NCBI RefSeq assembly: GCF_022376445.1
Contig: NW_025955115.1
Coordinates: 1-64,000 of the forward strand
Length of the DNA stretch: 64,000 nucleotides
Reading direction: 5' to 3'
Origin: Fomitopsis serialis
Taxonomy: Eukaryota; Basidiomycota; Agaricomycetes; Polyporales; Fomitopsidaceae
Each line of letters begins with the position of its first letter. Within the stretch, counting starts at the first letter, position 1. Under the pieces are notes generated by a model. The model was not told where the DNA came from and searched no databases. It saw only the letters and a program-made list of their open reading frames with translations. The translations under genes and the position numbers were made by a program. This document shows positions 2,312 through 46,428 of the stretch, in pieces.

Positions 2312-2830
2312 CACTGCGGACAACCCGGGTTGTGGCGCCGCCGGACATTGGTCTAACATTGGAAGACCGAGTAGATTAGTAAGCGGCGATTTACGGACCC
2401 GTAACATTGCAAGAAAAGAGGAAATGCCCGCCCTTTGTTCCGGGTCCTGACAAAGCAGGCCACAATTAGTATGTCGGGTGTCATAACATTGGTCACGTTT
2501 TCGCCGCAATGTTCCGAGGCCGCACAAACCACCAAGCATGTTGGGATAATGTTCGTGCAATGTGATAGGTCCTGACATACGTCATGTGCCGGTTGAGAAC
2601 AAAGGGGGGACATTCACTATGTTCCGACAATGTCTGCGCGCCGACAATTAGATATTTGCGGAACCCAGACATGTGCTATGTCCGGCTCGCTAAAATATTC
2701 TATTTGCGGAAGTCCAAAATGGGAAGTAAATGACTCATGTCCGGAGGTCTGACATAGCGTATGTTCCGTCACTATGTTCGCAGGCCGAACATTCCCTGTT
2801 TCGCTACGGAATCGTGAAACGATTCGCAAC
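2312..2830. promoter_or_regulatory. Left terminus with subterminal repeats
   Basis: The tip CACTGCGG is followed at once by a perfect 14-bp palindrome (2320-2333, ACAACCCGGGTTGT) and by GGCGCC (2334-2339). The next 500 bp are dense in short words repeated in both orientations: AACATTG or GACATTG (about 2344, 2355, 2403, 2486), GTTCCG (about 2438, 2510, 2620, 2763), and CCGGACAT/ATGTCCGG (about 2341, 2678, 2738). Such clusters are where CACTA transposases bind. The assignment is by analogy; no binding data exist here. Confidence 0.6.
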
Positions 2831-3189
2831 GACTCGCAACGCGAATGGTGGATGTCTTTTTACGAATCTGGCACACGATACCGCAGACGTATATCGGTGA
2901 AATAGATTCGGGTACTCTATCGCCAGCCTGATACCGCGACATCGCATTCGACGCGTATCACCTACGTTTGCCACAACGTCGCGATTCAACCTTTATCGCC
3001 ACCCTGATACAGCGACTTCACGACTTCGCTTTCCACGCCGCGATCGCCACAACGGCTTTCGATTCAATACCATGAAAGTTGCCCATATCTCGGGCAGGAC
3101 TGTCTTAAAATTACAGTGCTCCATTCGCGGGTCCAGATTCGCCTGTCCCAGACATAAGCCGATCGTCACTTTCTTAAGGGGGTGGAGGG

Positions 3190-3797
3190 GGGGGGTCGAC
3201 ATATGCCAGAGACGCGCGATCTCCGAAGTCGGGCGACCGCGAGTCACCGACGACGCGGTCAATCTCCTCCTGGGCCTTCTTGCACGCATCGGGATGGAGG
3301 ACCACCGTGAATAGAACGCCTTGAACACGGTGGTGGTCTGCGAGACATAGCCTTGAGCGTTAGATGCCACAGACATGGCATGCCGTCTTGAAGCGCATAC
3401 CGCGTCGGTTCCACCTGCACACGAGCAGTCCAGTCAGCAGCACTCGCAGTGCCTACACTCTGCAGTTACTCACCGCCGTAGACGATATGAGCGTGACAAA
3501 TGGGCTCCCGCAACCTCTATCGTCAGTGCGCCGATGCACCTGTGCGGCAGCGCCCCGTCAGCGCTCAAGTAAGCACGGCACGGTAAGGTCTACTCACCGC
3601 TTGACAAGCGTGAGGAACACTTCCGGCGACCCCAGCAGCCCGACGAGGATCTTGTGTGTCTCGCATTGCTGGATAGGGACGTAGCTTTCCAGCTTACTGT
3701 CGGGGACGTCGACGGCAATGTGCGCGGGGGAATCGAGGCTCGCAGAAGCCAAGACGGTCGCACCCAAACGCGTCCCCGAGGCACCAACTGGGATGTT
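3190..3797 (-). pseudogene. Cytochrome P450 relic (left-arm copy)
   Basis: This mirrors 44938-45545. Reading the minus strand gives scattered P450 fragments: ETHKILVGLLGSPEVF, like the region before helix D in basidiomycete P450s, then VVLHPDACKKAQEEIDRVVG followed by PDFGDRASLAYVD, the stretch between the I and K helices. The fragments are in different frames. The haem-binding FxxGxxxCxG region and ExxR are absent. It is a dead passenger. Confidence 0.6.
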
Positions 3798-5171
3798 GAG
3801 CTGGTATGACTACGCCCAGCAGCCGAGTTTGTACGGCATACAAAGAGGTGCGTCGCGACATATTCTTGATGCTGTAGATGGCAGTACGCGTCCGCGCCAG
3901 ACGAGCAGACGAGCATTCGACGGCAAGTTTTTGAGAGCGCAAAGACGTCCTGCAAAAGCAAGCCTGTAATCAGCGCTCGTCGACGCCCAGTATCATCGCC
4001 GACGACTCCAACACTCACGCTCCTTACAGAACTCTCACTCTCCAAGGCGCTCCTCCGCCCAGTCCAGCTCCCTCTTCCTCCACGCCACGTCTAGCGCGCC
4101 CTTCTCTAGTGCCCACCCCCTTCGAGCGTCGCGAGCACCTCCGTCGCCCCAGCTGAGCTCTATGAGAACGCCACAGTGCTCCAGCGCCAGCTCTGGCCGC
4201 TGCTCGAAGGCGCGTGAGAGGACGGTGCGCTCGGGCCCGGTCTAGAGGACCATGCCGCCCGTGAATACGGAGAGGGAGAACATGAGGATCGCGGGGCGGA
4301 GCGGAGATATGGGCAGAAGGGAGGGGGACTGGGAGAGCATTTTCGATAGAGATGCTTTGCAAAACGAGGGTCGTCAGCTGGCATATACTATGAGCGCGAG
4401 CCAAGGAAGGGACTCACGATTCGTGCGCGATCCTTGCCTGGCCGAACACACGACAAAGGCGACTGTGAGCACATGGCGGGGGCCCGTACTGCGCTCAATT
4501 CGACTCGGAGAGGCTGTATGTGCCTAGCTTGCAAGTAGCGAGTGAGCCCTGCTATGACTAGAAACGGAAACGTAAACGTAAGAGGGGAGACCGCCGAGAC
4601 TTAGGACGTGCGAACACACCGCCGAGATCAGTTCGTGATTCTACGCCATCCCCTGGAACCGGACAAGGCAACACTGGCACAACAGCGAACGAACATGGCG
4701 GTCAAGATACGCACTCCTAAAAGGGCCGGAGCATCAGTGTGGAGGGCGTGCGGTTGACAGAGGCGGAGAAGCTAGAGCGCCGTAAGAGGTGATCGATGGG
4801 AGGATGGGCGACAGGGGTGCGACATTGCGGGGCGAGACTCACCTGTAGGTGCCCTCGCAGCGCTCTTACTATAGCTGCTCCCTCGAGCTCCACGTCGGCG
4901 ACCTCACGCATACCCGTGTGGCAGGTCGCCGGCATCCTACCCTCTCTTCCGGTCTGGACGCTTGGATGTGCCATCTCCGTCGAACGCGCCCGCACGGCAA
5001 TTGCATTGTGAGAATGGTGTTCTCGTACGGCGCGTACGAGTACGATTAAGTGGGTAGATGTCGAGGAGTGATGTAAGGTATTAGGCGTGCTTTCGAACAC
5101 AGAAGTAATAGTTGAGTGAGACGACGGACAACTTGAAGGCGGACGATGTCAGACACACGATGTTTGCTGTC

Positions 5172-5366
5172 TCAAATGGGCCACGAATTTACCCAGAGCA
5201 CGAGTCCGTCGTTCAGTCGATTGGACGGCAATTGGTTCAACTCTGGACACCCGACTCGGACGCGACCACTGCACGAAGAGCAGCACGCCAGCCATATCGG
5301 GAAGGACGGGTGCTTGACGAGCAGACGTCCGCACTCGCAGCACTTGCACGCGCGAATCGTTCTCAT
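5172..5366 (-). other. Short ORF with paired CxxC motifs (left-arm copy)
   Basis: A 64-residue ATG-started frame with CKCCECGR near residue 8 and CCSSCSGR near residue 28, suggesting a small zinc ribbon. An identical frame lies at 43369-43563 in the right arm. I do not recognise a family. It could be an exon of a larger accessory gene of the transposon's original right end, or chance. Confidence 0.25.
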
Positions 5367-5511
5367 GGTGGCTGACGTGCTCAGATCCGATCACGGCCGT
5401 GCATCGAGCCATGGACGCCGCGCAGCATCTACAAGTACATGGTGTCCAAGCATACGTGGTCAGCGAGGGATGCGGCGTGAGGCAACAACGGACGTACCGG
5501 GTCTATCGCGC

Positions 5512-5577
5512 GGTACACCGGATTCGCGTGGTACACCGGATTCGCGCGGTACACAGGGTTCGCGCGGTACACAGGAT
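5512..5577. repeat. 18-bp tandem repeat in the left arm
   Basis: About 3.7 copies of the unit GGTACACCGGATTCGCGT with minor changes. The mirror copy lies at 43158-43223 in the right arm. The copy number is the same in both arms, consistent with recent duplication or exchange between them. Confidence 0.8.
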
Positions 5578-6838
5578 GAAAGACGAGTACGGTAAGTGCA
5601 TGGTGTTCGGCGTGGAGAAGACCCCCGCCTTGGAGCACGTATAGATGGCTCGCCGAACGTCGAGAGATGTTGGGCAGACGCGCGGAAGAGCTTGAGGCAG
5701 ATCCATTCAATGTTGATCAACAAACGAAGCGCACGTTTACCTTCCATCGTGAACGCGCTTGAAAGTCTTGCCGTGGACTCCAGGAAACGAGGGGCAGTCG
5801 TCTGGAGGATGAACCCCGCCGGGCTGGGCGCGTTATGTCGAGTGATCTGAAGGGATACGGCGCCAGGCAACACCCAGAATCAGAGCATGATCCCCAGGCC
5901 ATCAACGAACTCACCTGCAATACGGATGCTCACAGCACACGGTACGCTGCCCGCGGCGTTCACAGCAACTGCCCCGCTGCGCCACCCAAACGGACGGACC
6001 TAGCCGTCAAATTCAGCGGAGACGGCAACGAGGGTATTCGGGTACGGAGCGTTCGTGCCGTAGCATCCTCGGTCTCATCGCAGATTCCTCCGTAGTATTT
6101 CGCGGGCAGACAACGCGCCACAGACCTCGAGTCACCATTCAGCATGGCTGTACGATCTACGAATCGCGCAGGCTGCTTACCTTCGCGGCTGATTCTCACA
6201 ATCTCTAGACCACCAACTCCCTTCGGATGAGAGTCGTACGCTGTAGGTCGAACAGCCGCCAACCAAGAGCTTGCGACCGCTGCGCAAGTCATCGCCTTCG
6301 ACCCGTATGAGCTCATTGTCTTTCAGAGTCGCATAACTTCGGCTGACGTCGTCCTGAAAGCCGGCATCACCGTATCCGTTCTGTTATACAGGATGGGTCT
6401 TTCAATGCATCGTCGTGTGGAATGCCGAAAGCAGTGAGCCTACCTCTCATTTTGTGAACTCGTGTACTACACGAAGACCCTCCGTACTTGAAACAGCTCC
6501 GCGTTCACCCAGCGACGAATAGATTCATTCGGCAGCCATTACAAGCAGTTGAGAGAAGGATATATGCCGTATAAGTGGAAGATGGTAAGCGATGCGTGGA
6601 AGATGGTGGAAGATGAGAACAGAAAGACAAGGACTGGAACGCCACACACACAGTTGCATCGATTACCCTATGCGGCAATGACTTCAGCGCTGCTGTGACG
6701 TCACCCGACTGGCCGTATTAGCATCAGCGACAGAATACAAAGCGTCTGGCGTAGCTTGCGCACACCCAGAACGCCGTGATGCCTCATTATTCGCGGCTTG
6801 GTTCGCGTGAGGATAGACGTAGACGTAGCCTCTGAGCG

Positions 6839-7107
6839 TCATGTGCGCGTGACATCAACCATGCCTTCTGCAGTGTCCTCTGATCTATCCGAACGAGTGT
6901 CAGTATTGCGAGGCGAGAGGTAGAGATCCTGCAGCGTAAGGTAAGCTCCCTGACGAGATACGTCTTCCATATTTCGACGAGTACCTTTATGATGGGGAAG
7001 ACGTGGATCTTATGGTCGTCCGCGGTCGAAGCCCCGGCCCCAAAGTGGATCGGCCCGCCGTATGGTGTGCTTGCGAATGGGCAGACCACATCCTGCGCGC
7101 ATATGAT
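6839..7107 (-). pseudogene. Truncated 3' end of the Tnp2 transposase gene
   Basis: This is the left-arm mirror of 41628-41896. It encodes only the last part of the transposase (DVVCPFASTPYGGPIHFGAG...) and then ends abruptly at the arm boundary, with no upstream transposase sequence in 7108 onward. It is the footprint that shows which arm is the copy. Confidence 0.8.
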
Positions 7108-7361
7108 TACCTACCGTTGCTACATCAGTCTGGCTGACGATACTGGGGAACTTGACTTGGCTTGTAAGACTGGTACGATATATGAATGCTACATAATGAG
7201 GAGCGTACCTCAAGCCACGCGCTGTTCGGGGAAAGCTGGCTGTTCTGAGACCAAGTACTGATCCCGAAAGATAAGAGTCGTCCAAATACTTGACGTCTCG
7301 CTCGCGTGCTAACACCTTCCCTCCTTGTCCTCGCCCTCCTCAGTTCACCGTCCCAGAGACC

Positions 7362-8111
7362 ATGAATCATCCTATCTGCGAGCTATGTGACGCACGCTTG
7401 TATCAATCGCATCCTCTGTCTCCAAAAATAAAGATCAATACTCGATGCGGTCAGTGAACTCAGGCTGACTATTATCGCGTCGGACTCACAGTCATCAATG
7501 GCTCCCTAGGGCATCTGTTCTGCGAAGATTGTGTCGATCGCTATGTAGCGGAGTACCCCGGGCTAGGATGTCCAAACTGCGGCGCTGCCATAATCACCAT
7601 TGACCTGGCCAGACCAGTGGTCGTCAACAACACAAACAGCTTGACTGAAACATACCTGCGGGACATTTACATGCCTACCAATGTGGACGCATCGGATGCT
7701 TGGGCCCAACGGGCATTGTAAGTCTACCTCATTTCGGCAGGATGTGAAGGACTGACTCTGCACTGTAGGGATAATCCGCACACAGTGTACTTGGATCGTC
7801 GTCTCGGCTTAGCCACAGAGGCTCTAGGCTTTGCCAGACAAGATCATGATGTGCTTCAAAAAGAGAACTCGGCCAACTCGTCTGCTATATCGCGCCTGCT
7901 AGGGCAGCTGGAGGCGGCGAACAAGGAACAAGAGGAATCGGAGACAGCCTGTGAAGACCTGAGGCGTGAGTTGGCAATAGTGACTCTAAAGCGCCAGGAA
8001 ATGGAGGCAAAGGTGAATGTACGGAGCAAAGAGGTGAGCATGTTGATCAGTGCTGGCTGGAACGTCTCAAACTGATCCATTCATCGTGTGTAGCTGTTGC
8101 CAAATGAGTAG
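7362..8111 (+). CDS. RING finger / coiled-coil protein 1 (cargo)
   Basis: Four exons (7362-7449, 7510-7717, 7769-8033, 8094-8111 approx.) join in frame through GT-AG introns of about 50-60 bp. The first two encode a complete C3HC4 RING: CELC at residues 6-9, CGH at about 29-31, CEDC at about 34-37 and CPNC at about 48-51. The following region is a heptad-rich coiled coil of about 90 residues. A RING of this type normally recruits an E2 for ubiquitin transfer; the coiled coil would give dimerisation or target choice. Substrate unknown. It is the first intact gene inside the left arm and is one of three RING/coiled-coil genes in the cargo, all on the + strand. Confidence 0.8.
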
Positions 8112-8800
8112 TTTTCATATGTCTTACAAGCACCATGCACGTCAGAATGATAGCGTACAGTGTGCCGTCCGTCGATGAGACCTTGTCTCAGTGGACTCCA
8201 GTGAATCGTCTTATTTCGGCACAGGTTGTCCGTTTGCCTGGAGCCAGTGTCCTCGGCGTGTTACAACATATGCAATTTACCCTGTTATAATTTAGTTCTT
8301 TTTTGGGCTACTCGCCCTGCACGTTCTCGGGCACAGCATTCTGGACACCGTCGACTCACCGATCTACGCGTCAAAAGTGCGACGACGAGCAGCAGATAAA
8401 CATGATAAACTATAGACGCACCAAGAAGGACGTCGGTGAGATCAGCAAAAGGACTATGCGGGGCGACACCGCACCATGCCACGCCATGAGGGGTAGCCGC
8501 CGACCAGTGGGTGCGGACGATATCACAAACTCGTAGGACTGGTCCTTGTTCTGATTTGTACGACGCAAGCCACGGGTGTTCGCCCGGAGTGCTCAGGGGC
8601 TGTGATCCATGCCACAAGATTTCAGGAATAACGGTGTGAGGCACACGGTCCGTACCTTTGGACTTGCTATGCGATCAACGACGTCGCTCTCCGGAGTACC
8701 TAAGCATATATTGTGCTCGATCACAGTCGGCCAAACGTTCGTGCGTCACGACATACCGAGAACTTTGAGGATCTTGTTCAATTGGTCGACTATGGGACAG
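8112..8800. other. No gene seen
   Basis: Only short ORFs on both strands without splice-linked partners or recognisable motifs. Confidence 0.5.
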
Positions 8801-9350
8801 TCAATCGCTATCCTGCATGGAGTGAGCTAACGGCTCCTCATCCGGTTTTGAGCTGAACCCTCTGTTCAGACCGAAGTCGCAGATCTTCAGCCCACGATCA
8901 GCTTTCGCCAGCGGGTTGCCGGGCTTCAGGTCTCTATGTACGACGGACGCAGAGTGAATATATTTCATGGCCTGGAGAACCTGGCTGAGGAAGTACTGGA
9001 CGTACTCATTGCTGAGCATCTGTCCAGATTCGATGATATGATGCAGATCCGCTGGTGCGACGAAGTCAGATATCTCAGCGAGAGTGACACGATAAGAATT
9101 GCGCACCTTCCATCGGCTACTCACCAACTTCAGGATCCCGCGAGTCGGACACTCGTACGCACAGCCTGAGATATGACGAGCCTCCGTAAACTTGGTAAAG
9201 AGCACGCTTTCCAAGCTGGACCTTCTCGGTCGCGCGAGTAATCATCTTGATCGCCGCCGGCTGCTGAGCTGCAAGATCTTCGTCAATACGACGGTCCGGC
9301 GTTCTTGCCAAAGGATAGACAGATAAGAGGTAGCCGTAAGCCTCCGGACC
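8801..9350 (-). pseudogene. MAP-kinase-like relic
   Basis: Minus-strand fragments follow the order of a fungal MAP kinase N-lobe and early C-lobe. A degraded glycine loop (GPEAYG) is followed by [20 protein letters not shown] (the ATP-binding lysine and helix C), then [20 protein letters not shown], the catalytic loop HRDLKPGN and the DFG motif as CDFGLNRGF. The frame stops soon after the activation segment. The TxY site, the P+1 loop, the MAPK insert and the rest of the C-lobe are missing, and the N-lobe pieces are in another frame. It is a captured, non-functional piece. Confidence 0.7.
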
Positions 9351-10177
9351 CCATCTCGCGAATAAACTTTCATCGTTTCTCGATAGGAAACGCTCTGCCA
9401 AAGCAGGACATGCGCGTATGGTATCCTCTGCGCCCGAATAGTCAGATTTGACCACCACGATGGACGTTGAGGACCTGAGGTCTACGCACCGTCGCCGAAG
9501 TGCGCCACTCGACCGGGTGCGAGCCACTGCACGCGTCTGCGAGCGTCCACGCCGGCCGCTGGAGGAGTCGGGTCACTCGGGTAAAAGTATCGGAGACGAC
9601 AACCTACCTGGACCGTTCTCCTGTCTCTCGCTCTTCAGCGTTACTTATCGTCTCCGGAGATCGGCGTTGATACCTGTGGTGAAGGAGCAGTAGCCATATC
9701 ACAGTCGGATCCCGAATGCAGCTGCAAGTAGTCGGCGGTAAGTGCGTTCAGGGGGCCGTCAGGATACTCAGACTCGAATGCAAGACTGAGGCAAGGCATG
9801 TACGACCGATCGCGATGCGTAGGTCGGGCAGGTTACTGCGTGGACGGGATCCGCAAATTAGAAAGCCTGAATTGTCAGGTGCCGGTACTTGCTGCGATGT
9901 CGATGGTCGGCAGCAAAGTCTGACAAAGTTCACCCAGTCAGGCACAGCCACCACGATGCATGCATGACGAGACCAGTTGCATTGCGATAGCAGTAGCACG
10001 AAAACAGCGATAATGATGAGCGGATATGAGAGCACAGAGCAGAGAGACACGCTGTACAATGCTTACTAGCGTACAGCCAACGATCACCGACCACCGACCA
10101 CCGACCCCACAGCCCAGTCCAGCCCGAATCCCAAGAACGACTAAAGGACCTGTGAACCCTCAAGGAGGACTCACGAC
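9351..10177. other. No gene seen
   Basis: Short ORFs only; nothing with conserved motifs. Confidence 0.45.
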
Positions 10178-10813
10178 TCACTTCACCGTAGACACCCGCT
10201 TCGTATGCATCCCCGCCCGTCTCCTCTCACTATGCGGCATGGGCCTCCTCCACGCCTCCTCCTCCTCCATGTGCCCCTCCTCCTGCTGCGTCTGCTCCCC
10301 GCCATGCTCCTCTCCCTGTTGCTCCTTCCCCTGCTGCGGCAGTGGCGGCGGCGAGTGCATCGGGTGCTGCATCTGGACGTCCATGGGGGTGTGTGGTGGC
10401 GTCGTCCACTTGCGCTGTGGCGGCGCGGGGTGCGGGCAAGGCGACAATGCGGACACGGGCGCGGACTGGGCTGGGACGGGGATGACAGGAATGCTGCGCG
10501 GCGCATTCGCGCTCCCCTGTGTCGGCGGTGGCGGTCCGGACTGGGGAGGCGGCACGAGCTCGGGACGCGTACGGAGCGAGCGCGACGTCTGACGGGCGAT
10601 TGGCTTAGCGGGCGCCGGAGGCTGAGAGTGAGGTTGCAAATTTGGATGGGCGTGTAGGTAGGGCTGCGACGGGCCGGCATGCATGTCGGCTTCGATCTGT
10701 ACGGCGACGATCTCCTTACCCTTGCACGCGAAGAAGGCGCGCTCCTGCGCGGAGAAGATAGCAGACATCGGGCCCATCATGGGGTTGGGCGGCGGCGGGG
10801 GGAAGAGCGCCAT
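10178..10813 (-). CDS. Proline-rich, low-complexity protein (cargo)
   Basis: A 211-codon ATG-started frame. It opens with a run of prolines and methionines, continues with a central proline/glutamine/histidine-rich segment, and ends acidic then basic (HMEEEEAW...RRR). The frame stays open upstream to about 11015, so the true start may lie in an earlier exon. I recognise no domain. Because the DNA is very GC-rich, all frames are open here and the coding strand is not certain; the minus-strand frame has the most protein-like composition. Confidence 0.4.
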   Translation of the reverse strand: MALFPPPPPNPMMGPMSAIFSAQERAFFACKGKEIVAVQIEADMHAGPSQPYLHAHPNLQPHSQPPAPAKPIARQTSRSLRTRPELVPPPQSGPPPPTQGSANAPRSIPVIPVPAQSAPVSALSPCPHPAPPQRKWTTPPHTPMDVQMQHPMHSPPPLPQQGKEQQGEEHGGEQTQQEEGHMEEEEAWRRPMPHSERRRAGMHTKRVSTVK

Positions 10814-11635
10814 GAGTTCGTGGCCCGTTGGCGGCGCGGGGAAGCCGCTGCGGCGGGGCGCGACGGCAGAGGACGCGTCGACGGGGGAGAGCTCGAGGTC
10901 TGCGCGTAAGGACGTCAGCAGGGGCAGTCGTGGTACAGGGATGGCGCACCTCGGAGGATCGGGGGCGACATGGGCAGCGCGGGCGGGATGTGCAGGAGGA
11001 GCGAGTCGTGGGCCTCATGGCACCGTGTGGCGCTTAATACTTACCGGTCGTCGAGCTAAGTCGTGGATTTTGACGGCCAATATTAATTTGAACTTACTGA
11101 TATGTGCGTCACCAGCGATGCGACCTGGATGCGACGTGGCTGAGACGCAAAACGCTTTTGGAATGCCCGGCCTCGGACTATCGGACAACTGGCAACCGTA
11201 CTTACATCAGTTCGCGCCGCATCATATCCCAATGGGAAGCCTTCGGTTCCTACTCGACTGCACCCAACTTTGGCGAGGTGGCACGACACGGCCGCGCGAG
11301 CCTGAACTCACGCAGTTCCCTCGAAATGTATCAACCGTACAGTCATACTGCATGTAAGTAGACCGAGGGAGGAGGGAAGGGAAATGAGAAAGACGGGGAG
11401 AAGAATGTGTGTGGCGAGTCGCGAGGGCGAGAAGAGGCGGCGCGGATGCGCATATGCCGTGAACGGTGGCACGACCTATGTAAGTACATGCGGCGTACTC
11501 CATCCGTTCATACAATCTCAGCTTCGTGCGGTGAGTCCTTCCAGCCTGGTTCTCACACGCATGATGCTGAACAACATGTCTAGTGTGCAATGAGACTTGA
11601 CGTCTTCAGTCTATATGCCTGCTGACGTTGGAGCT

Positions 11636-12350: not shown

Positions 12351-12639
12351 GAACCTTACTTTGATGTCAAAAGCAGCTGTATATGAAGGCCTCAACCATG
12401 TAAGATCGTATATGAAATATATGGAGAGCATCTCGTGCGTCGGCAAAGCCTGCAGTTCGAATGTCCGGTCGAAAGAACCTGAGCAATCGCTCTACGGAAG
12501 GCTCTCACTGTTGAGTTCTTGCATCGGCACCTGGCGTATTCTCTCGGCCAGGCCTCTCAGGATCGAAGTGCCCAGTAACCAAGACTTTGTGCGCGAGGTC
12601 GTACAGTCTCGCCGTTCTAAGGGGTGTGATCGATGTCAT

Positions 12640-20698: not shown

Positions 20699-20732
20699 TT
20701 GAAGTCTTCCACACTCGAATCAAACCTTCATG

Positions 20733-33804: not shown

Positions 33805-35120
33805 ATGCCCTCGAGCAAGGAGCCGGGTGCCAGCCGACCCTCTGAGGAGGACGTCATCGACATCTCCTCGGACGACGGCGAAGCGCTCCATAATGCCAGG
33901 CGCGAGCCTTTACAACGGGACGCGCGCGAGGCTTCTGAACGCTCTGCAACACGTCCCAAAAAGCGTCCGAGAGGCAACGCAGCGCAAGCGGAAGTCCGGC
34001 GGAACACATCGACAACCAAGGACAACGTCAAGCGCGCACAAGGGCGGGGTACGCCATCCGATAGGAACGAGGCTCTACAAGAAGCCCTCGTTGCGGTATC
34101 AGCTGCCAGGGCCAAGTTACAGCGCGAGCTTGAGGCAGCTCACCAGGCATCGGACGAGCTATTACAGCAGTTAGCTGCCACAACTCAGGTATTGTGTTTT
34201 GTTTTCCCAACTGAGATGGGCTAATCGGACGCCTGCAGGAACGGGACAGCCTGCAGCTCATCGTTCAGGAAGGGCACAAGCATAGAGTGGAAAAACAGGT
34301 ATTCGTTCGCACACTCTATTTTACCGCAATCTCACACGTCCGCTCTAGGAAGTGAGCAGCGCTACTATGTGTACGATTGAATCGTTAACCAGGCCTTACA
34401 GGAAACCAAGCGGTTGCAGGAGGAAGCCCAGCGATTACAAGAGGAAGCCCAGCGATCACAAGAGGAAGTCCGACGATTACAGGGGGAAGCACGACGGCGC
34501 GAGGGCACTGTGGCGGCGACCTCAAGGGTAAGCCCGCGCATATCGCCCCTTCATTATCTGATCTACATCACTGTTGCTCAGGGGTTGATCGATGCTCTGC
34601 AAAGCGATTCGACCTGTACGATTTGCACTTGCCGACTGTGGTTGCCCTACGCGTAAGCCTGTTACCACAAGATATCACCGTTGATCCACAGCTTAACGTC
34701 TTGTCTATCCGCAGCTTGCCTTGCGGCCACACAGCATGCCAGGCGTGCCTCAAAGAGTGGTTCAGTGAGGCACTGATGCAACATCTGCATAATAACCCGG
34801 AATTGGAATGGCCGAACCTACAGCCTTACCGCGACGCCATTCGCAACCCCGAGCTACCAAGGGCGGATCGTGAGCGTGCCAAAGCAGAGCTCACTGACGC
34901 TCTGGCGGCCTACCCCCGTCCGCGCTATACATGTCCAACCTGTCGACAGCCGGCCAAGACGAGACCAACAGAAGAAGTGTCTCTCAGGAGCATCGTATGG
35001 GCCGTTGCTGAGGCACTCGGAGAAGAAAATCCAACGAAGTCCGACCGTGAGGCGGGGGGTAATCATAATATTTGGGACGGGTTTTTCTTACCTACAGCGG
35101 ACGATCTCAGGCTGGAGTAG
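33805..35120 (+). CDS. RING finger / coiled-coil protein 3 (cargo)
   Basis: The ATG at 33805 begins MPSSKEPGASRPSEEDVIDISSDD, an acidic segment resembling a SUMO-interacting motif (VIDIS followed by acidic residues). A basic linker (RPKKRPRG) could be a nuclear signal. Coiled coil spans several exons, including repeated QEEAQRLQEE units. After introns near 34530-34580 and 34653-34714 comes a C3HC4 RING (CTIC, LPCGHTACQAC, later CPTCRQPAK) with a long insertion between the zinc-binding pairs. The C-terminus has SLRSIVWAVAEALGEEN. It ends at 35120. The combination of a possible SUMO-interacting motif, coiled coil and RING would fit a SUMO-targeted ubiquitin ligase, but this is inference. Confidence 0.75.
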
Positions 35121-36367: not shown

Positions 36368-37279
36368 TTCCTGACTAGCTCTACGCGGCAAAAGATGAGC
36401 TAAGACGTTGCGCTGCGTTGTATTACTACCATCGTTGTACTTATCTCTGTAACGTGTGCCTGTCCTCTCGATATGTACGGGTGACCCTGCCACTCGCCGC
36501 GCGTAACAGCCTGCGTGCTGGACATTTCTACGCGTGCACCAAGAGCAAGCTGGCCTCAGAAAAAACGAAGGGGGCGTACTAGGAGGGGGCGTTCAATTTG
36601 GCTCTGTAAGTCGAGTTCGCGGCAATGGCAGGAGCTGGCAGTCGCGATGACCGCTCTCACTTCCTCGCGCAGCTTCATTGGCTAACGAGTTTCTGTCAAC
36701 ATCGGGCTGTCTCAGGCTAGCATCTTCATTTCTCTTCGATGCTGAGCAAGAGGTGGCCTTTTACAATCTGTGCGGGTTACGCCGACTGCCTACTACTAGT
36801 CTCGCGCGCATAAGCGCTGGCGCGGTGCCGCAGGCTTCCCATCACTTACTCCTCCTCCGAAGCCCAACTCCCAGCTGCCATACCAATACTGCTCACTCGG
36901 AAAGAATCGTTGAGCGTCATATCAGCTCTCTACCCCTAGAGGTTAGAGGCCAAGCGCTGTTTCTGTTCTTTCAGGCGGTGCTCCGTGTGCGTGTTAATCG
37001 TCGACGATCATCAGTTTTTTGTGAGTGATTTCCAAGCCCGTACCACCGGCATTGTGTGAAATGCCAACAAACATTCGATGTGACATTCTGACACTTTGAT
37101 AGGATGTGTTGAGCGTGCCGTCATACAGGACCCATAGAACGGAAGCGACTCCGAGTCGGATATCTGCCTGCCAATACAACGATCGCTCAGGTGAATCTTG
37201 AATATGGTCTTTCAAGCTCGATGGATGCGGTGCTAAAGGGTTCAGTCGCAGGTTCACTTGTGTGTGTACTCGACGCGCC
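36368..37279. other. Transposase upstream region
   Basis: About 900 bp between the HDGIP gene and the transposase start. No internal CACTG terminus followed by the palindrome seen at 2312 was found here, so the ancestral left end of the element is not preserved next to its transposase. Confidence 0.45.
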
Positions 37280-40200
37280 ATGAATAACTCGTTGCGTAGC
37301 ACTTGGGCGAGCCACACAACCGCTGTTGTGGATGGCAAACTCAAGTATCTGTGTCTCTGCGACGCGTACCATTGTCGCGACAAGACGACGATCGATCCTC
37401 GGAGCGGCGACAACGTCGCTGGGAGTTGGGCCACCTCCCGTGCCCTACAGCATCACCTCAAGGTCGACTGGCTGTCGCAATGTCTGCACCGAAACCTTTC
37501 ATTTGGACCGGGCGTCGAGGCCAGACATATGGCGCTGACTCTGTCTGATGACCCTCCTCCCGCCGTCTCTTTGGAAGACTTCGCCATACCGCTTGGACCA
37601 TCGACATCGCCGCCCGAACAGGCCCCTCCTCTTGGCTCTTCAACAGCCGTGGGGCCGCCCAGCACTAACGAAGACAACGAAGACCTCGACGCATACGCAC
37701 GCATCGAGAGCTCTTTAAGCGATCTCGATACCATGCTCCGCACCATCAACCAAGAAACTCTAGGATTCTCGGCCACTTCTCCGCTAGCTTTCGCAAATCC
37801 CCCAAATCCCGCGTCGCCTTTGTACGCGTATCCCGAGGAGATTCCAGACCGCCCGAACACCGGGATTCTTGCGCTTTCGTCCACCTCCGCGTGCAATACA
37901 GCGCTGCTGGCTCATGAGGCTAAGATGTACAATCACTTGGATCTGAACGGACGGTACGCAATTCCCAGCGCTGAGGCGGTTGAGGCTCATCGTCTGCGCA
38001 TTCGGGATATTATCTGCGGAGAGATCAAACGAATCTGCGACATCAGAGGCAAGGAATGGGACGCACAGCGCGAGCATGGTCCGCCAGACTCTCGGAGTCA
38101 CATTGAGCATAGAGGAGCTGCCAGGATTTATTTCAACAGCGGTGAGTGTACTCGCGCCGCTTTTTTGCACATCCTAAGCGACGATGTGTTCGCAGATCGC
38201 TATCACCGGAGGGTCTTCCCTGGACTCGACCCGGCTGTGGCCGCGTTGTGCTACATGGTCTTGACGCTCGCTCTGCTCTGCGGCGTATCGAGGAAGCGGT
38301 GCAACTGGGTCCTTGACATCGTCCGTTTCGTCTTCTCTTCCTTCCAGGCCAAGTTGGGCCTTATCGGCCATATCCCCGCCGATATTCGCAGCTTGATCCG
38401 CCACTTCGACATCGATCCGGACGTCAAGACGTATATCTCGTGTCCCCAGTGCTTCTGCCTGTACCCAGACAACCCAGACTGTCCAGAACGTTGCACGTAC
38501 CAGGCTTATCAGACTGCCCCGCTGTGTGGCGCCGAATTGTTCGCGACGCGAGTGCTCAAGGGAGGGAGACATACCATGGCCGTTCGCAAGTACTTGCACC
38601 AGGACTTCAAGGCGTGGCATGCGCGCCTTCTAGCTCGGAAAGACATCGAACTGTCGCTAGACAACTATGCTAGACAGGCTAAGCAGGCGTCGCATGCTGG
38701 CAAACGCGAAAGGGTAAACGATATCATGGAGAGCAAGGTCGTGCAGGACTTCATCGGGCCCGACGGTTCACGGTTTATGGACTGCCCGGATGAGGAGCTC
38801 AGGCTGATCTGGGGCTTCGCATTTGACAGTTTCGACCCGCACCATATGAAACCCGCGCGCAGGAGCATCTCGTCCACCGCTATATACCTTGTGCTCATGA
38901 ACCTTCCTCCAGATCTCCGCTATCGCGAAGAGAACATGTTCTTGGTCGGCGTAATTCCTGGCCCAGGGAAACCTTCCTTGGACGAAATCAATCACTATAC
39001 GCGACTCATCGTGGATGACCTGCTGGTGTTTTGGAACCCTGGTGTCTACTTCTCCAAAACCGCTGCTCATCCAAACGGCCGTTTTACTCTTGGCGCTCTC
39101 ATTCCCATGATATGTGATCTCCCCGCTGCCCGCCAGATTTCTGGTTTTGCAGGCCACTCGGCTACGTACTTCTGTTCAATCTGCCTTCTGGACAGGGATG
39201 ACATCGAACAGATCTCGAAGTCGAGCTGGACGTACCGGGACCTCGCGACGCATCGAGAGAGCGCCGAGACTTGGCTCACTCTCACTAAAAAGAGCGCGAG
39301 AGCTGCCCACATTCGACAAGGCGGTGTACGGTGGACCGAATTCCTGCGACTTCCGTACTGGAACCCTTACGATTCACTGTGATCGAGTCTATGCATACTC
39401 ACTTCCTTCGCAACCTGATGCACCACATATCCTACGCTTGGGGTATGGATGCGTCAAGGCCATCTGGCGATGGGATGCTTTGCCACAAGATGGATGTTCC
39501 GCCATGTTCGGTCAAAAACAAGACACTAGAGTGGGAAGAGAAAGAGGAGCTCTTATGGACCGCGACGCATGAGACCCTGGAGGCGGAGTCCTATGCAGTG
39601 TTGTGGCACTTATGCTACGATCGTGACCTCCGACGAGCGGGATCTGTGCGCATGCTCGTCCGACGTCTGATCGCATGGGTATGTTTCACGACGTCTGTAG
39701 GGCAGTATTCAAGGTTAACAAATTCCTCTTCGTACAGCGCGACAGTCAGCCCCGCCGTGGACCTAAAGCCGTAACTCCCTCTACCGCAGAGGCCGCCGCG
39801 TTCGTTACTACCTCGGATGAGGTTCATGGCAGTCCTGTAGGCGTAGCTGTCTTTTCAATGAAATAAACTTCGCTTACCGACTATGCAGCGACGTCTAATG
39901 AGCGTGGACACAGAACCACTCACGAGTGAAGACTCTGCACGTATATCAAACTACACCATGTCGCAGTCGGGGGTATCTGGCGGGAGTAATGCAGTCGGTA
40001 CGTACTGCGCACAAACACAGATATCTATTCTTTCGCCCATATCGACCTCATGGACCCGTTTTCAGGGCCGCTCAACACGCATGGCTTCGAGAGAACACCA
40101 TCCTACTCCACAGAAGGAGGTTCCGAGGCGTCGACGAGTTCTCAGTCCAGCCAGGCTTGGACTGAGGACGAGGTGGCCAAGGCCCAGATCGGGCTTGCCA

Positions 40201-41896
40201 AGAGGAACAAGAATCCCAACGTACGGGCACCAGTGCTCCAAGCCCTCTGCATGAGAAATGGCATAGCAAGCGAGGGGACAAAGAAGCAGATGTGGCAGCG
40301 ACTGTTGGATTGGGTGAGCGTTCACGGTCAACAGTTCTATGTTTCCTATGCCGAGAGCGTCTGCAGGCGGCCATACAACCAGAGGAAGTGAACGTGCTTC
40401 CTGCAGATAGGAATGCAGTCGTGCTTGGGGTTGAGGTATTGCAAGAAGTATGGGACGATATTGATCGAATGCTTCTCCCTTCGTGCGTCGCTCCTGCTCC
40501 CCGCAAGGTTGCTGTGAAGCCCGGAAAACTCAAAGCGGATGAATGGCGCTCGTTGGGGATGGTGCATCTGGTCGTAACTCTGGTACGGCTTTGGGGTTTC
40601 AAAGGCGGAAGACACGAAGATATGTTGCACAACTACATGCATCTCGTGTCTGCCGTCTTCATTTCTTGCCTTCGATCAACAACTCAAGAACACATCAACG
40701 CGTACGATTTTTACTATACAGCCTACCTTGATCGGTTCCTTTCTCTGTATCCAGAAGTACCGCTTCAACCCAGCAATCACCTTGCTCAGCATCACGACGA
40801 AAACTTGGAGGATCTAGGCCCTTCCCACGCTGTACGAGCTTTCGGTCCCGAACGTTTCAACCACAGCCTACAGGAGATCCCGACGAACATGAAGTCAGGT
40901 ATGTACTCGTTTCAAGGACTATGCCTTGACTCTGACGGCTCGGTAGGTGAACTAGAGATGACAATGATGCATCACGCAAATCGTGCCGCCAATGTCCGGC
41001 CGCTGCTCACGAACGGGAGCCTCCCCACAGAATTGTCAGCGCTGCAGCCATCATTCGATAAGGCGTTTCAATCGGAGTCTCGGGGAACAAGGCTGAATGA
41101 CATATTGGGCCTTGGGGACGCGGCCCGGCTGCAGATCAAGGAGTTCTCGTCTTCAATTCGGTTCTCAACTGACTACGAGAGAGCTCTGGTGATGAACTAT
41201 ACAGGAAGACGAGATCTCAGAGGTGCGCCTGATGATCCAATGCAAGCTGAACACGGCTGACTTTGACCGCCCTGTAGGAATCGTTTCATGCTCTGTGATG
41301 CGAGTGAACGGCTTCAGCTTTCGGCCATTCTTCAGGAGTCACCGAGATGCCAACATACTCATGCGATCATCTGAAGGACGCTCTGATATCACCGACCCGA
41401 CACTGCCTGGAATCGAGGAGATGGGGATCGTTCCCGCGCAGATATCTCGGATACTATGGGAAAAGGAGCACCCTTCGGGCACATCTGAGGGAGGCGCAAA
41501 CCGAGTGTTCCTCATCGTGCGGCGACACGTACCTCTCGACCAGGACGTCTACAAAGATGATCCCTATCGCGCGTTCGGATTCGCGATCTCCGGCTGTCTA
41601 TTCTACGAGACTCTCTCGCAGCCAGAGATCATATGCGCGCAGGATGTGGTCTGCCCATTCGCAAGCACACCATACGGCGGGCCGATCCACTTTGGGGCCG
41701 GGGCTTCGACCGCGGACGACCATAAGATCCACGTCTTCCCCATCATAAAGGTACTCGTCGAAATATGGAAGACGTATCTCGTCAGGGAGCTTACCTTACG
41801 CTGCAGGATCTCTACCTCTCGCCTCGCAATACTGACACTCGTTCGGATAGATCAGAGGACACTGCAGAAGGCATGGTTGATGTCACGCGCACATGA
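37280..41896 (+). CDS. Tnp2-type (CACTA/CMC) transposase, apparently frameshifted
   Basis: The ATG at 37280 (MNNSLRSTWASH) leads into a cysteine motif (LCLCDAYHCRD) typical of Tnp2 N-termini. The first exon holds the Transposase_21 core: ISCPQCFCLYPDNPDCPERC, then FAFDSFDPHHMKPAR, IYLVLMNLPPDLRY, FLVGVIPGPGKPSLDEINHY and ICDLPAARQISGFAGHS followed by CSICLL. Near 39358-39366 the frame changes: LPYWNP is followed by LRFTVIESMHTHFLRN in another frame, implying one lost base or a sequence error. Later exons splice cleanly (about 39738-39836, 39889-40003, 40065-40316, and on), including KLKADEWRSLGMVHLVVTL and YPEVPLQPSNHLAQHHDENL. The last two junctions, near 41227/41279 and 41751/41795, end the protein in VDVTRT at 41896. 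From 41628 the gene lies within the right arm. Function: cutting and rejoining element ends; activity doubtful if the frameshift is real. Confidence 0.85.
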
Positions 41897-44800
41897 CGCT
41901 CAGAGGCTACGTCTACGTCTATCCTCACGCGAACCAAGCCGCGAATAATGAGGCATCACGGCGTTCTGGGTGTGCGCAAGCTACGCCAGACGCTTTGTAT
42001 TCTGTCGCTGATGCTAATACGGCCAGTCGGGTGACGTCACAGCAGCGCTGAAGTCATTGCCGCATAGGGTAATCGATGCAACTGTGTGTGTGGCGTTCCA
42101 GTCCTTGTCTTTCTGTTCTCATCTTCCACCATCTTCCACGCATCGCTTACCATCTTCCACTTATACGGCATATATCCTTCTCTCAACTGCTTGTAATGGC
42201 TGCCGAATGAATCTATTCGTCGCTGGGTGAACGCGGAGCTGTTTCAAGTACGGAGGGTCTTCGTGTAGTACACGAGTTCACAAAATGAGAGGTAGGCTCA
42301 CTGCTTTCGGCATTCCACACGACGATGCATTGAAAGACCCATCCTGTATAACAGAACGGATACGGTGATGCCGGCTTTCAGGACGACGTCAGCCGAAGTT
42401 ATGCGACTCTGAAAGACAATGAGCTCATACGGGTCGAAGGCGATGACTTGCGCAGCGGTCGCAAGCTCTTGGTTGGCGGCTGTTCGACCTACAGCGTACG
42501 ACTCTCATCCGAAGGGAGTTGGTGGTCTAGAGATTGTGAGAATCAGCCGCGAAGGTAAGCAGCCTGCGCGATTCGTAGATCGTACAGCCATGCTGAATGG
42601 TGACTCGAGGTCTGTGGCGCGTTGTCTGCCCGCGAAATACTACGGAGGAATCTGCGATGAGACCGAGGATGCTACGGCACGAACGCTCCGTACCCGAATA
42701 CCCTCGTTGCCGTCTCCGCTGAATTTGACGGCTAGGTCCGTCCGTTTGGGTGGCGCAGCGGGGCAGTTGCTGTGAACGCCGCGGGCAGCGTACCGTGTGC
42801 TGTGAGCATCCGTATTGCAGGTGAGTTCGTTGATGGCCTGGGGATCATGCTCTGATTCTGGGTGTTGCCTGGCGCCGTATCCCTTCAGATCACTCGACAT
42901 AACGCGCCCAGCCCGGCGGGGTTCATCCTCCAGACGACTGCCCCTCGTTTCCTGGAGTCCACGGCAAGACTTTCAAGCGCGTTCACGATGGAAGGTAAAC
43001 GTGCGCTTCGTTTGTTGATCAACATTGAATGGATCTGCCTCAAGCTCTTCCGCGCGTCTGCCCAACATCTCTCGACGTTCGGCGAGCCATCTATACGTGC
43101 TCCAAGGCGGGGGTCTTCTCCACGCCGAACACCATGCACTTACCGTACTCGTCTTTCATCCTGTGTACCGCGCGAACCCTGTGTACCGCGCGAATCCGGT
43201 GTACCACGCGAATCCGGTGTACCGCGCGATAGACCCGGTACGTCCGTTGTTGCCTCACGCCGCATCCCTCGCTGACCACGTATGCTTGGACACCATGTAC
43301 TTGTAGATGCTGCGCGGCGTCCATGGCTCGATGCACGGCCGTGATCGGATCTGAGCACGTCAGCCACCATGAGAACGATTCGCGCGTGCAAGTGCTGCGA
43401 GTGCGGACGTCTGCTCGTCAAGCACCCGTCCTTCCCGATATGGCTGGCGTGCTGCTCTTCGTGCAGTGGTCGCGTCCGAGTCGGGTGTCCAGAGTTGAAC
43501 CAATTGCCGTCCAATCGACTGAACGACGGACTCGTGCTCTGGGTAAATTCGTGGCCCATTTGAGACAGCAAACATCGTGTGTCTGACATCGTCCGCCTTC
43601 AAGTTGTCCGTCGTCTCACTCAACTATTACTTCTGTGTTCGAAAGCACGCCTAATACCTTACATCACTCCTCGACATCTACCCACTTAATCGTACTCGTA
43701 CGCGCCGTACGAGAACACCATTCTCACAATGCAATTGCCGTGCGGGCGCGTTCGACGGAGATGGCACATCCAAGCGTCCAGACCGGAAGAGAGGGTAGGA
43801 TGCCGGCGACCTGCCACACGGGTATGCGTGAGGTCGCCGACGTGGAGCTCGAGGGAGCAGCTATAGTAAGAGCGCTGCGAGGGCACCTACAGGTGAGTCT
43901 CGCCCCGCAATGTCGCACCCCTGTCGCCCATCCTCCCATCGATCACCTCTTACGGCGCTCTAGCTTCTCCGCCTCTGTCAACCGCACGCCCTCCACACTG
44001 ATGCTCCGGCCCTTTTAGGAGTGCGTATCTTGACCGCCATGTTCGTTCGCTGTTGTGCCAGTGTTGCCTTGTCCGGTTCCAGGGGATGGCGTAGAATCAC
44101 GAACTGATCTCGGCGGTGTGTTCGCACGTCCTAAGTCTCGGCGGTCTCCCCTCTTACGTTTACGTTTCCGTTTCTAGTCATAGCAGGGCTCACTCGCTAC
44201 TTGCAAGCTAGGCACATACAGCCTCTCCGAGTCGAATTGAGCGCAGTACGGGCCCCCGCCATGTGCTCACAGTCGCCTTTGTCGTGTGTTCGGCCAGGCA
44301 AGGATCGCGCACGAATCGTGAGTCCCTTCCTTGGCTCGCGCTCATAGTATATGCCAGCTGACGACCCTCGTTTTGCAAAGCATCTCTATCGAAAATGCTC
44401 TCCCAGTCCCCCTCCCTTCTGCCCATATCTCCGCTCCGCCCCGCGATCCTCATGTTCTCCCTCTCCGTATTCACGGGCGGCATGGTCCTCTAGACCGGGC
44501 CCGAGCGCACCGTCCTCTCACGCGCCTTCGAGCAGCGGCCAGAGCTGGCGCTGGAGCACTGTGGCGTTCTCATAGAGCTCAGCTGGGGCGACGGAGGTGC
44601 TCGCGACGCTCGAAGGGGGTGGGCACTAGAGAAGGGCGCGCTAGACGTGGCGTGGAGGAAGAGGGAGCTGGACTGGGCGGAGGAGCGCCTTGGAGAGTGA
44701 GAGTTCTGTAAGGAGCGTGAGTGTTGGAGTCGTCGGCGATGATACTGGGCGTCGACGAGCGCTGATTACAGGCTTGCTTTTGCAGGACGTCTTTGCGCTC

Positions 44801-44937
44801 TCAAAAACTTGCCGTCGAATGCTCGTCTGCTCGTCTGGCGCGGACGCGTACTGCCATCTACAGCATCAAGAATATGTCGCGACGCACCTCTTTGTATGCC
44901 GTACAAACTCGGCTGCTGGGCGTAGTCATACCAGCTC

Positions 44938-45545
44938 AACATCCCAGTTGGTGCCTCGGGGACGCGTTTGGGTGCGACCGTCTTGGCTTCTGCGAGCCTC
45001 GATTCCCCCGCGCACATTGCCGTCGACGTCCCCGACAGTAAGCTGGAAAGCTACGTCCCTATCCAGCAATGCGAGACACACAAGATCCTCGTCGGGCTGC
45101 TGGGGTCGCCGGAAGTGTTCCTCACGCTTGTCAAGCGGTGAGTAGACCTTACCGTGCCGTGCTTACTTGAGCGCTGACGGGGCGCTGCCGCACAGGTGCA
45201 TCGGCGCACTGACGATAGAGGTTGCGGGAGCCCATTTGTCACGCTCATATCGTCTACGGCGGTGAGTAACTGCAGAGTGTAGGCACTGCGAGTGCTGCTG
45301 ACTGGACTGCTCGTGTGCAGGTGGAACCGACGCGGTATGCGCTTCAAGACGGCATGCCATGTCTGTGGCATCTAACGCTCAAGGCTATGTCTCGCAGACC
45401 ACCACCGTGTTCAAGGCGTTCTATTCACGGTGGTCCTCCATCCCGATGCGTGCAAGAAGGCCCAGGAGGAGATTGACCGCGTCGTCGGTGACTCGCGGTC
45501 GCCCGACTTCGGAGATCGCGCGTCTCTGGCATATGTCGACCCCCC
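44938..45545 (+). pseudogene. Cytochrome P450 relic (right-arm copy)
   Basis: Exon-like pieces in order: LGATVLASASLDSPAHIAVD, then YVPIQQCETHKILVGLLGSP, then VVLHPDACKKAQEEIDRVVG and PDFGDRASLAYVD. The P450 match stops at YVD, where unrelated sequence begins. Frames differ between pieces and the haem-binding region is absent. It predates the arm duplication because both arms carry it. Confidence 0.6.
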
Positions 45546-45904
45546 CCTCCACCCCCTTAAGAAAGTGACGATCGGCTTATGTCTGGGACAGGCGAATCTG
45601 GACCCGCGAATGGAGCACTGTAATTTTAAGACAGTCCTGCCCGAGATATGGGCAACTTTCATGGTATTGAATCGAAAGCCGTTGTGGCGATCGCGGCGTG
45701 GAAAGCGAAGTCGTGAAGTCGCTGTATCAGGGTGGCGATAAAGGTTGAATCGCGACGTTGTGGCAAACGTAGGTGATACGCGTCGAATGCGATGTCGCGG
45801 TATCAGGCTGGCGATAGAGTACCCGAATCTATTTCACCGATATACGTCTGCGGTATCGTGTGCCAGATTCGTAAAAAGACATCCACCATTCGCGTTGCGA
45901 GTCG

Positions 45905-46428
45905 TTGCGAATCGTTTCACGATTCCGTAGCGAAACAGGGAATGTTCGGCCTGCGAACATAGTGACGGAACATACGCTATGTCAGACCTCCGGACATGAG
46001 TCATTTACTTCCCATTTTGGACTTCCGCAAATAGAATATTTTAGCGAGCCGGACATAGCACATGTCTGGGTTCCGCAAATATCTAATTGTCGGCGCGCAG
46101 ACATTGTCGGAACATAGTGAATGTCCCCCCTTTGTTCTCAACCGGCACATGACGTATGTCAGGACCTATCACATTGCACGAACATTATCCCAACATGCTT
46201 GGTGGTCGTGCTTTGTGCGGCCTCGGAACATTGCGGCGAAAACGTGACCAATGTTATGACACCCGACATACTAATTGTGGCCTGCTTTGTCAGGACCCGG
46301 AACAAAGGGCGGGCATTTCCTCTTTTCTTGCAATGTTACGGGTCCGTAAATCGCCGCTTACTAATCTACTCGGTCTTCCAATGTTAGACCAATGTCCGGC
46401 GGCGCCACAACCCGGGTTGTCCGCAGTG
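45905..46428. promoter_or_regulatory. Right terminus with subterminal repeats
   Basis: Mirror of 2312-2830, ending in the GGCGCC and ACAACCCGGGTTGT palindromes and then CCGCAGTG. It carries the same ACATTG, GTTCCG and CCGGACAT words. The 6-bp difference from the left arm (extra bases near 46207) falls within this zone. Confidence 0.6.

What the first reader, a model, noticed from the sequence alone, without database searches (positions are those of the whole stretch)
2312..46428. A 44-kb CACTA-like transposon carrying at least ten cargo genes in a basidiomycete
Seen: CACTG/CAGTG tips, 3-bp GCG duplications, 4.8-kb inverted arms, a Tnp2 transposase and about 34.5 kb of non-transposon genes. 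Known: CACTA elements make 3-bp duplications and can capture host fragments, but are usually much shorter. Large cargo-carrying elements in fungi are best known as Starships of Pezizomycotina, which use a tyrosine recombinase. A cargo-carrying DDE-transposase element of this size would be a different route to moving gene clusters.
Basis: partly seen in the sequence, partly recalled or inferred. Interest (0 to 1): 0.97.

Follow-up and report, generated by a model that had tools for sequence, protein, structure and literature searches.

The report
Giant gene-carrying cut-and-paste mushroom transposon
In the genome of what is very likely the wood-decay fungus Fomitopsis serialis, a 44,117-base block with near-identical 4.8-kb inverted ends sits in the middle of a predicted gene, and a relative of an inferred 61 kb in the same genome carries the same set of about ten predicted genes; both are likely giant transposons of the CACTA type that move their genes as one unit, which would be a route for moving gene blocks in mushrooms separate from the known Starship elements.

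Summary
Confirmed and extended. Window 2312-46428 is a 44,117-bp element with CACTG/CAGTG tips, GCG on both sides, 4.8-kb inverted arms differing by two indels and no substitutions, and a Tnp2 (PF02992) transposase gene. It splits a predicted gene; the rejoined flanks are collinear across the seam with an uninterrupted 70%-identical paralogue (3,663 columns). A second family in the same assembly (very likely Fomitopsis serialis) has a related tip, 3.68-kb arms, a related transposase and the same ten cargo gene blocks. Its inferred length is 60.9 kb (last 3.1 kb by contig overlap); its tips lie at four or more sites, one of which also exists unoccupied. Nine cargo blocks have dN/dS 0.17-0.39, so most cargo looks like a conserved core of the element, not freshly captured host genes; a MAPK fragment and a P450-like fragment look captured. 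Four of four short 309-bp elements examined share the tip's first 17 bases and have perfect 3-bp duplications. Against: the window copy's transposase frame is shifted by one base, no reads were seen, and the window's own family is single-copy. Best reading: a giant, conserved-cargo CACTA/EnSpm-type transposon, moved as a unit by a DDE transposase.

The parts
2309..2311 (.). left copy of the 3-bp target duplication GCG
   Evidence: sequence
2312..7107 (+). left terminal inverted arm, tip CACTGCGGACAACCCGGGTTGTGG
   Evidence: self-BLAST 99.83% to 46428-41628
2312..2384 (+). 73-bp terminal segment that also matches (81-84%) 29 other places, of which four were read and are 309-bp short elements
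3196..3300 (.). stretch in the left arm 88-90% identical to C16/C228; mirror of the P450-like stretch in the right arm
7356..8066 (+). cargo G1, RING-like zinc finger, by eye followed by a coiled coil
   Evidence: tblastn to C323:297526-298241; Pfam RING weak and below cut-off; dN/dS 0.27 on two of three blocks
8558..9749 (-). truncated MAP-kinase-like gene fragment, probably captured; a fuller relative lies on C391
   Evidence: Pkinase; 78-84% DNA match in four pieces to C391; MAPK type recalled, not from a call
9994..11199 (.). region of 75-80% DNA identity to C168, C412, C501, C519 and C434; coding unclear, no Pfam
12538..13977 (-). cargo G2, no Pfam
   Evidence: 47-78% aa to C323; dN/dS 0.19
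15431..16815 (-). G3, weakly conserved block (32-45% aa), not counted among the ten
17407..20433 (-). cargo G4, WD40 protein; hydrophobic C-terminal segments by eye
   Evidence: dN/dS 0.26
19772..20116 (+). cargo G4b, RING-like (below cut-off); lies opposite G4
   Evidence: dN/dS 0.25
20805..23326 (+). cargo G5, hydrophobic N-terminus by eye, no confident Pfam
   Evidence: dN/dS 0.28 on two of five blocks
24108..24926 (-). cargo G6, no Pfam
   Evidence: dN/dS 0.39 on one of four blocks
26451..27664 (+). cargo G7, hydrophobic segments by eye, no confident Pfam
   Evidence: 74-77% aa; dN/dS 0.21; genome relatives
29090..29756 (+). cargo G8, no Pfam
   Evidence: dN/dS 0.24
30101..31540 (-). cargo G9, HxD...H...RxS pattern; candidate Fe(II)/2-oxoglutarate dioxygenase (motif by eye, recalled)
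   Evidence: no Pfam or credible PDB match, fold models failed
32478..35117 (+). cargo G10, RING finger protein (below cut-off)
   Evidence: dN/dS 0.17 on four of six blocks
37274..41893 (+). transposase gene (Tnp2, PF02992); 1-bp frame shift near 39367 relative to C323
   Evidence: dN/dS 0.12 on four of six blocks
41628..46428 (-). right terminal inverted arm, includes the 3' part of the transposase gene
45418..45540 (+). P450-like fragment inside the right arm
   Evidence: PF00067 E 2.9e-4, 20.2 bits against a cut-off of 22.8
46429..46431 (.). right copy of the target duplication GCG
   Evidence: sequence
46429..46541 (-). predicted first coding part of the interrupted gene A (continues at 2311 and leftward)
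   Evidence: joined frame; paralogue C115

Best explanation
The 44,117-bp segment 2312-46428 interrupts a predicted gene and has CACTG/CAGTG tips, matching GCG flanks and 4.8-kb inverted arms; it is likely a giant CACTA/EnSpm-type DNA transposon that was inserted as one unit by a Tnp2 DDE transposase. Shown: the anatomy; the interruption, by an uninterrupted paralogue; a sister family with a related tip, long arms, a related transposase and the same ten cargo gene blocks, its tips at four or more sites; one unoccupied copy of such a site in the same assembly. Inferred: the sister's full length of about 61 kb (last 3.1 kb from an overlapping contig); that the transposase binds the conserved ends, cuts the whole element out and joins it to a 3-bp staggered target; that the cargo travels as a conserved core which probably serves the element itself (three RING-like proteins, a WD40 protein, membrane-like proteins and a possible dioxygenase); and that one end is now and then copied over the other, which keeps the arms identical. 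The window copy would now need a transposase supplied in trans if its 1-bp frame shift is real.
For: Arms, tips, GCG flanks. Rejoined flanks give an open frame across the seam and match C115 over 3,663 columns at 70% with no gap at the seam. Sister element C323:252513 onward: related tip; transposase 73% identical in DNA over 2.4 kb; ten cargo gene blocks, 36-87% aa identity per exon match. Its other end lies on C25/C180/C442, which share the 3,682-bp arm (C25 100%, C180 99.9%, C442 99.5%) and overlap C323 at 99.0-99.8%. Estimated length 60,938 bp. Flank 3-mers pair up: C323 ACA with C25 ACA, C105 AGT with C101 AGT. Empty site at C783: 369 of 369 nt at 99%; 1,014 columns at 96% with a single AGT. 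Short 309-bp elements with the same first 17 tip bases: 4 of 4 examined have perfect 3-bp duplications. dN/dS 0.17-0.39 for nine cargo gene blocks, pN/pS 0.23 for G9 where dS is saturated, 0.12 for the transposase; mismatch by codon position 0.18/0.13/0.40. Stronger G9 relatives lie within 60 kb of a related transposase at 9 of 10 loci and stronger G7 relatives at 8 of 12; with weak rows included, 10 of 18 and 10 of 21; at most 3.6% of the genome is that close.
Against: The window transposase has a 1-bp frame shift. The window's own family has one copy, so its mobility is read from its sister family. No empty orthologous site for the window insertion was found, only a paralogue. The sister element is not on one contig: C323 ends 3.1 kb short of the inferred tip. 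C180 and C442 have no identified partner end. The joined C323/C25 flanks found no empty copy. In nucleotide alignments of 16 cargo blocks only 34 of 184 indels are multiples of three, 15 of 58 in the transposase, no more than chance; I take this as noise of a cheap-gap alignment at about 70% identity, but it was not resolved. No tip was found in the two 10-kb pieces of the C501 relative that I read. Part of the window interior (8.1-12.4 kb) has no counterpart in C323 beyond one weak 55-residue match. A 3-bp flank match alone has a 1-in-64 chance.
Confidence: 0.92

Rival explanations
1. Two separate ordinary CACTA copies in inverted orientation flank a stretch of host DNA, which may or may not have moved as a composite.
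For: The arms are near-identical inverted copies, and the right arm plus transposase could be one end of an ordinary element.
Against: The inner arm ends have no tips. The outer flanks rejoin into one predicted gene. The same cargo follows a related tip and transposase in a second family with different arm length.
Confidence: 0.04
2. A small CACTA element landed in gene A and then grew in place by nested insertions and captures, so the 44-kb unit never moved as such.
For: The MAPK-like fragment and the P450-like fragment in the arms look like additions; the window's own family is single-copy.
Against: Ten cargo gene blocks are shared with the C323 family, whose tips are at four or more sites. 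Synonymous divergence of the cargo blocks (0.75-2.09, G9 saturated) brackets that of the transposase (1.39), as expected if they diverged together.
Confidence: 0.03
3. An integrated DNA virus or linear plasmid with long terminal inverted repeats, using a DDE integrase.
For: Long inverted arms and a conserved set of genes without known domains are reminiscent of such elements (recalled).
Against: Pfam scans of all six frames over 7108-46428 name only kinase, WD40, RING, Tnp2 and a P450 fragment; no polymerase, capsid or packaging ATPase. Conserved stretches are broken up as by short introns. The short elements with the same tip start behave as transposons.
Confidence: 0.02
4. Assembly artefact: inverted arms or interior wrongly joined.
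For: No reads are available; C25, C180 and C442 end at the same place inside the sister element.
Against: Independent contigs repeat the tip, arm and cargo arrangement, and C783 shows the empty alternative of one site.
Confidence: 0.02

Closest known systems
CACTA/EnSpm DNA transposons, fungal EnSpm as in Kojima 2025 (PMC12730594; abstract, sections 15, 20, 21 and passages seen)
   Same: CAC..GTG tips, 3-bp duplications, Tnp2-type DDE transposase; some fungal EnSpm carry one extra gene (TET/JBP)
   Different: 44 and an inferred 61 kb, 3.7-4.8-kb arms, about ten conserved cargo genes; a review passage-20-kb En/Spm with 4-5 ORFs in a red alga significantly enlarged (PMC6431247, passages)
Plavaka (related fungal transposons)
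   Same: related transposase, some carry an extra gene
   Different: Plavaka termini are TGT..ACA or CATCA..TGATG with 2-3-bp duplications; no PF18759 match here
Starships
   Same: giant, cargo-carrying, in fungi; works alike as a carrier of gene blocks
   Different: Starships use a tyrosine recombinase; none found here. They are described in Pezizomycotina (abstract listing), with eight reported in the basidiomycete Tremella (PMC13066641, passages)
Pack-type gene-capturing elements of plants (mentioned for MULEs in PMC6431247 passage)
   Same: the MAPK-like and P450-like fragments look like host-gene captures
   Different: the bulk of the cargo is a conserved gene set with signs of purifying selection, not fragments

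Membership tests
CACTA/EnSpm | 5'-CAC..GTG-3' termini | tested here: met
   criterion from PMC12730594
CACTA/EnSpm | 3-bp target duplication | tested here: met
   GCG/GCG in window; ACA and AGT pairs in the sister family; 4 of 4 short elements examined
CACTA/EnSpm | Tnp2-type transposase | tested here: met
   PF02992 E 7.2e-13, 48.7 bits against a cut-off of 28.6
CACTA/EnSpm | DDE triad with C(2)C and H(3-4)H motifs | tested here: inconclusive
   CSIC and MHTHFLRN seen by eye; no structural or phylogenetic test
CACTA/EnSpm | transposase phylogeny within EnSpm | not tested
   no reference set loaded
Plavaka | TGT..ACA or CATCA..TGATG termini | tested here: not met
   tips are CACTG..CAGTG; criteria from PMC12730594
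Plavaka | PF18759 domain | tested here: not met
Starship | tyrosine recombinase captain gene | tested here: not met
   no such Pfam match in six frames over 7108-46428; frame-wise search, so a gene split into short exons could be missed
Starship | giant size with gene cargo moved as a unit | tested here: inconclusive
   size and shared cargo met; the empty site belongs to an insertion whose interior is only partly assembled. A likeness of working, not membership

The most novel reading that the evidence does not exclude
Polyporales carry a lineage of giant CACTA/EnSpm elements (44 and about 61 kb in the two families measured, transposase plus cargo relatives on eleven contigs of one genome) with their own conserved core of about ten genes for ubiquitin signalling, membrane and possibly DNA-demethylation functions. 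It is a DDE-transposase counterpart of Starships that still jumps as a whole and evolved independently.
Probability: 0.6. Interest if true: 0.88.

Novelty: new variant of a known kind. Interest (0 to 1): 0.82.

Why it matters
It would show that a cut-and-paste DDE transposase can carry 44-61 kb with a full gene set in fungi, so giant cargo elements would not be a privilege of tyrosine recombinases. The gene core is conserved across an old split and near-identical copies sit at several sites, so cargo function, excision and between-strain spread can be tested directly. It also warns that runs of hypothetical genes in polypore genomes may be parts of transposons. The rows listed by searches of the held open-licence library showed no such element; several of those searches matched more papers than they listed, and subscription papers are not held.

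Tried and rejected
Composite of two small elements, in-place growth, virus and assembly error were weighed and put low (see rivals). TET/JBP-like identity of G9: suggested by its HxD...H...RxS pattern (recalled motif) and by Kojima's report of divergent TET-like proteins in fungal transposons (PMC12730594, section 21). No Pfam match, no PDB match by sequence, only two poor unrelated PDB rows by profile (E 0.17 and 0.32), and two fold models failed (mean pLDDT 34 and 43), so it stays a lead; no fold search was run. A third full-length element on C501 was sought; the two 10-kb pieces read hold no tip and no inverted pair. The home-made gene finder fused genes and was used only for leads and splice guesses. 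tRNA scan: none. The transposase protein search gave 6 unnamed metagenome or unlabelled proteins and scored only the 7,995 candidates sharing most words, so it says little on distribution.
Full report
WHERE. The window is contig C63:1-64000 of a 66.2-Mb, 806-contig assembly. Two cargo proteins named as Fomitopsis serialis lie on database contigs of 310,352 and 251,121 nt, exactly the lengths of C323 and C501, so the organism is very likely that polypore (Polyporales).

THE OBSERVATION. The arms 2312-7107 and 46428-41628 are 99.83% identical, with one 6-bp and one 1-bp indel and no substitution inside. The outer ends read CACTGCGG and CCGCAGTG with GCG on each side. The inner ends carry no tip. 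A 25-position tip pattern with up to two mismatches has 14 matches in the genome: 9 exact, 2 here and 7 in one other family, and 5 with two mismatches on C176, C224, C229, C352 and C586; the reversed control has 0.

THE INTERRUPTED GENE. Joining 1-2311 to 46432 onward gives a minus-strand frame that is open across the seam and ends at a stop inside what looks like a short intron. The joined DNA matches C115 at 74%, extended to 70% over 3,663 columns without a gap at the seam. C115 is taken as a paralogue because of its divergence; no empty allele of this insertion was found in the assembly.

THE SISTER FAMILY. C323 from 252513 on has a related tip, a transposase on the opposite strand and then the window's cargo. 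tblastn of window frames keeps 61 non-overlapping matches: one end gene (G1), a central block and the transposase, plus short matches in the arms. The central block 12.5-35.1 kb is inverted relative to the two ends, with a smaller inversion at 24.1-27.7 kb inside it. The window's 8.1-12.4 kb has only one weak match there. C25, C180 and C442 carry the other end: a 3,682-bp arm 100, 99.9 and 99.5% identical to the C323 arm, and 11 kb overlapping the right part of C323 at 99.8, 99.4 and 99.0%. This gives 60,938 bp, the last 3.1 kb by overlap. Contigs agree from the tip inward and differ outside it, except that C105 and C570 share their flank. Seven tips make at least four sites: C323 with C25 (ACA), C105/C570 with C101 (AGT), C180, C442. 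The joined C105/C101 flanks exist uninterrupted on C783 (369 of 369 nt at 99%; 1,014 columns at 96%), so presence and absence coexist in one assembly, presumably two nuclear haplotypes. That insertion's interior is assembled only for 18.6 kb on C105 and 3.1 kb on C101. The joined C323/C25 flanks gave no empty copy.

SHORT ELEMENTS. Of the 40 scored hits, 29 cover only about 73 bp from the tip. Of these I fetched four. All four are 309-bp elements with inverted ends, the same first 17 tip bases as the window and perfect 3-bp duplications TAA, TCA, ACA, TAA. They are likely non-autonomous partners.

THE CARGO. Ten gene blocks were tested: G1, G2, G4, G4b, G5, G6, G7, G8, G9, G10, using 25 of the 39 exon matches that assigns to them, and 4 of 6 for the transposase; the rest, mostly short or weak, and G3 were left out. 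dN/dS is 0.17-0.39 in nine; G9 has saturated synonymous sites (pN/pS 0.23). The transposase has 0.12. The blocks were chosen because they align as protein, which biases these values down. Mismatch by codon position is 0.18/0.13/0.40 in 16 cargo matches and 0.14/0.09/0.43 in two transposase matches. Against this, only 34 of 184 indels in those cargo alignments are multiples of three, and 15 of 58 in the transposase. Pfam names RING-like fingers (G1, G4b and G10, all below cut-off) and WD40 repeats (G4); G2, G5-G9 have no confident match. G9 was found in 4 proteins at E <= 0.001 and 8 at E <= 0.01 by profile, of capped candidates: named ones are from Fomitopsis, Rhodofomes and Pilatotrama (Polyporales, the last two placed from memory), two are unnamed. 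Gene counts rest on conserved blocks, not on transcripts.

CAPTURED PIECES. 8558-9749 matches a kinase gene on C391 at 78-84% in four pieces, with the middle missing. A P450-like stretch lies in the arms (DNA relatives on C228 and C16).

HOW WIDE. Taking the stronger rows, one per locus, G9 relatives lie within 60 kb of a related transposase at 9 of 10 loci and G7 relatives at 8 of 12; at most 3.6% of the genome is that close. With every weaker locus included, it is 10 of 18 and 10 of 21, on eleven contigs in all. The window and C323 are among the counted loci, and three G9 and two G7 loci on C223 share one transposase, so the counts are not independent. Ends of the other nine were not found or not looked for.

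ACTIVITY. The C323-type transposase reads open for 1,069 aa; the window copy has one base fewer near 39367 and leaves that frame. This may be a real lesion or an assembly error.

MECHANISM. Shown: anatomy, interrupted gene, shared cargo, repeated insertion sites, one empty site. Inferred: cut-and-paste by the Tnp2 transposase at the tips; copying of one end over the other to keep arms identical (the left arm of the window contains the 3' part of the transposase gene); cargo serving the element. Untested: cargo functions.

KNOWN KINDS. Tips and 3-bp duplications fit fungal EnSpm/CACTA and not Plavaka as described in PMC12730594 (sections 15 and 20 read). A review passage-20-kb En/Spm with 4-5 ORFs significantly enlarged (PMC6431247, passages). 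A Marasmius study mentions library elements up to about 42 kb without the passage saying which (PMC9674265, passages). Eight Starships are reported in the basidiomycete Tremella (PMC13066641, passages). The rows listed by eight literature searches showed no giant cargo-carrying CACTA element in fungi.

Noticed in passing
window 46711-63663: The right flank appears to hold a run of related genes, some resembling the interrupted gene A (home-made gene finder); one open frame matches DUF6532.
   Followed up: partly
L042-L045: 309-bp short elements with the same first 17 tip bases and perfect 3-bp duplications; 29 such 73-bp tip hits in the genome, four read.
   Followed up: partly
L039 (C783:1-1500): Unoccupied copy of a giant-element insertion site inside the same assembly, suggesting that both nuclei of a dikaryon are partly assembled.
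   Followed up: yes
window 8558-9749; L038: Broken kinase gene fragment inside the element; a relative with a fuller kinase domain on C391.
   Followed up: partly
window 45418-45540 and about 3196-3300: P450-like fragment inside both arms, DNA relatives on C228 and C16.
   Followed up: no
C223:983974-1048903: Three G9 and two G7 relatives around one related transposase, perhaps a partly duplicated giant element.
   Followed up: no
L026, C323:299193-307999: The sister element contains internal repeats of about 0.8 kb (64% alike) in its non-transposase end.
   Followed up: no
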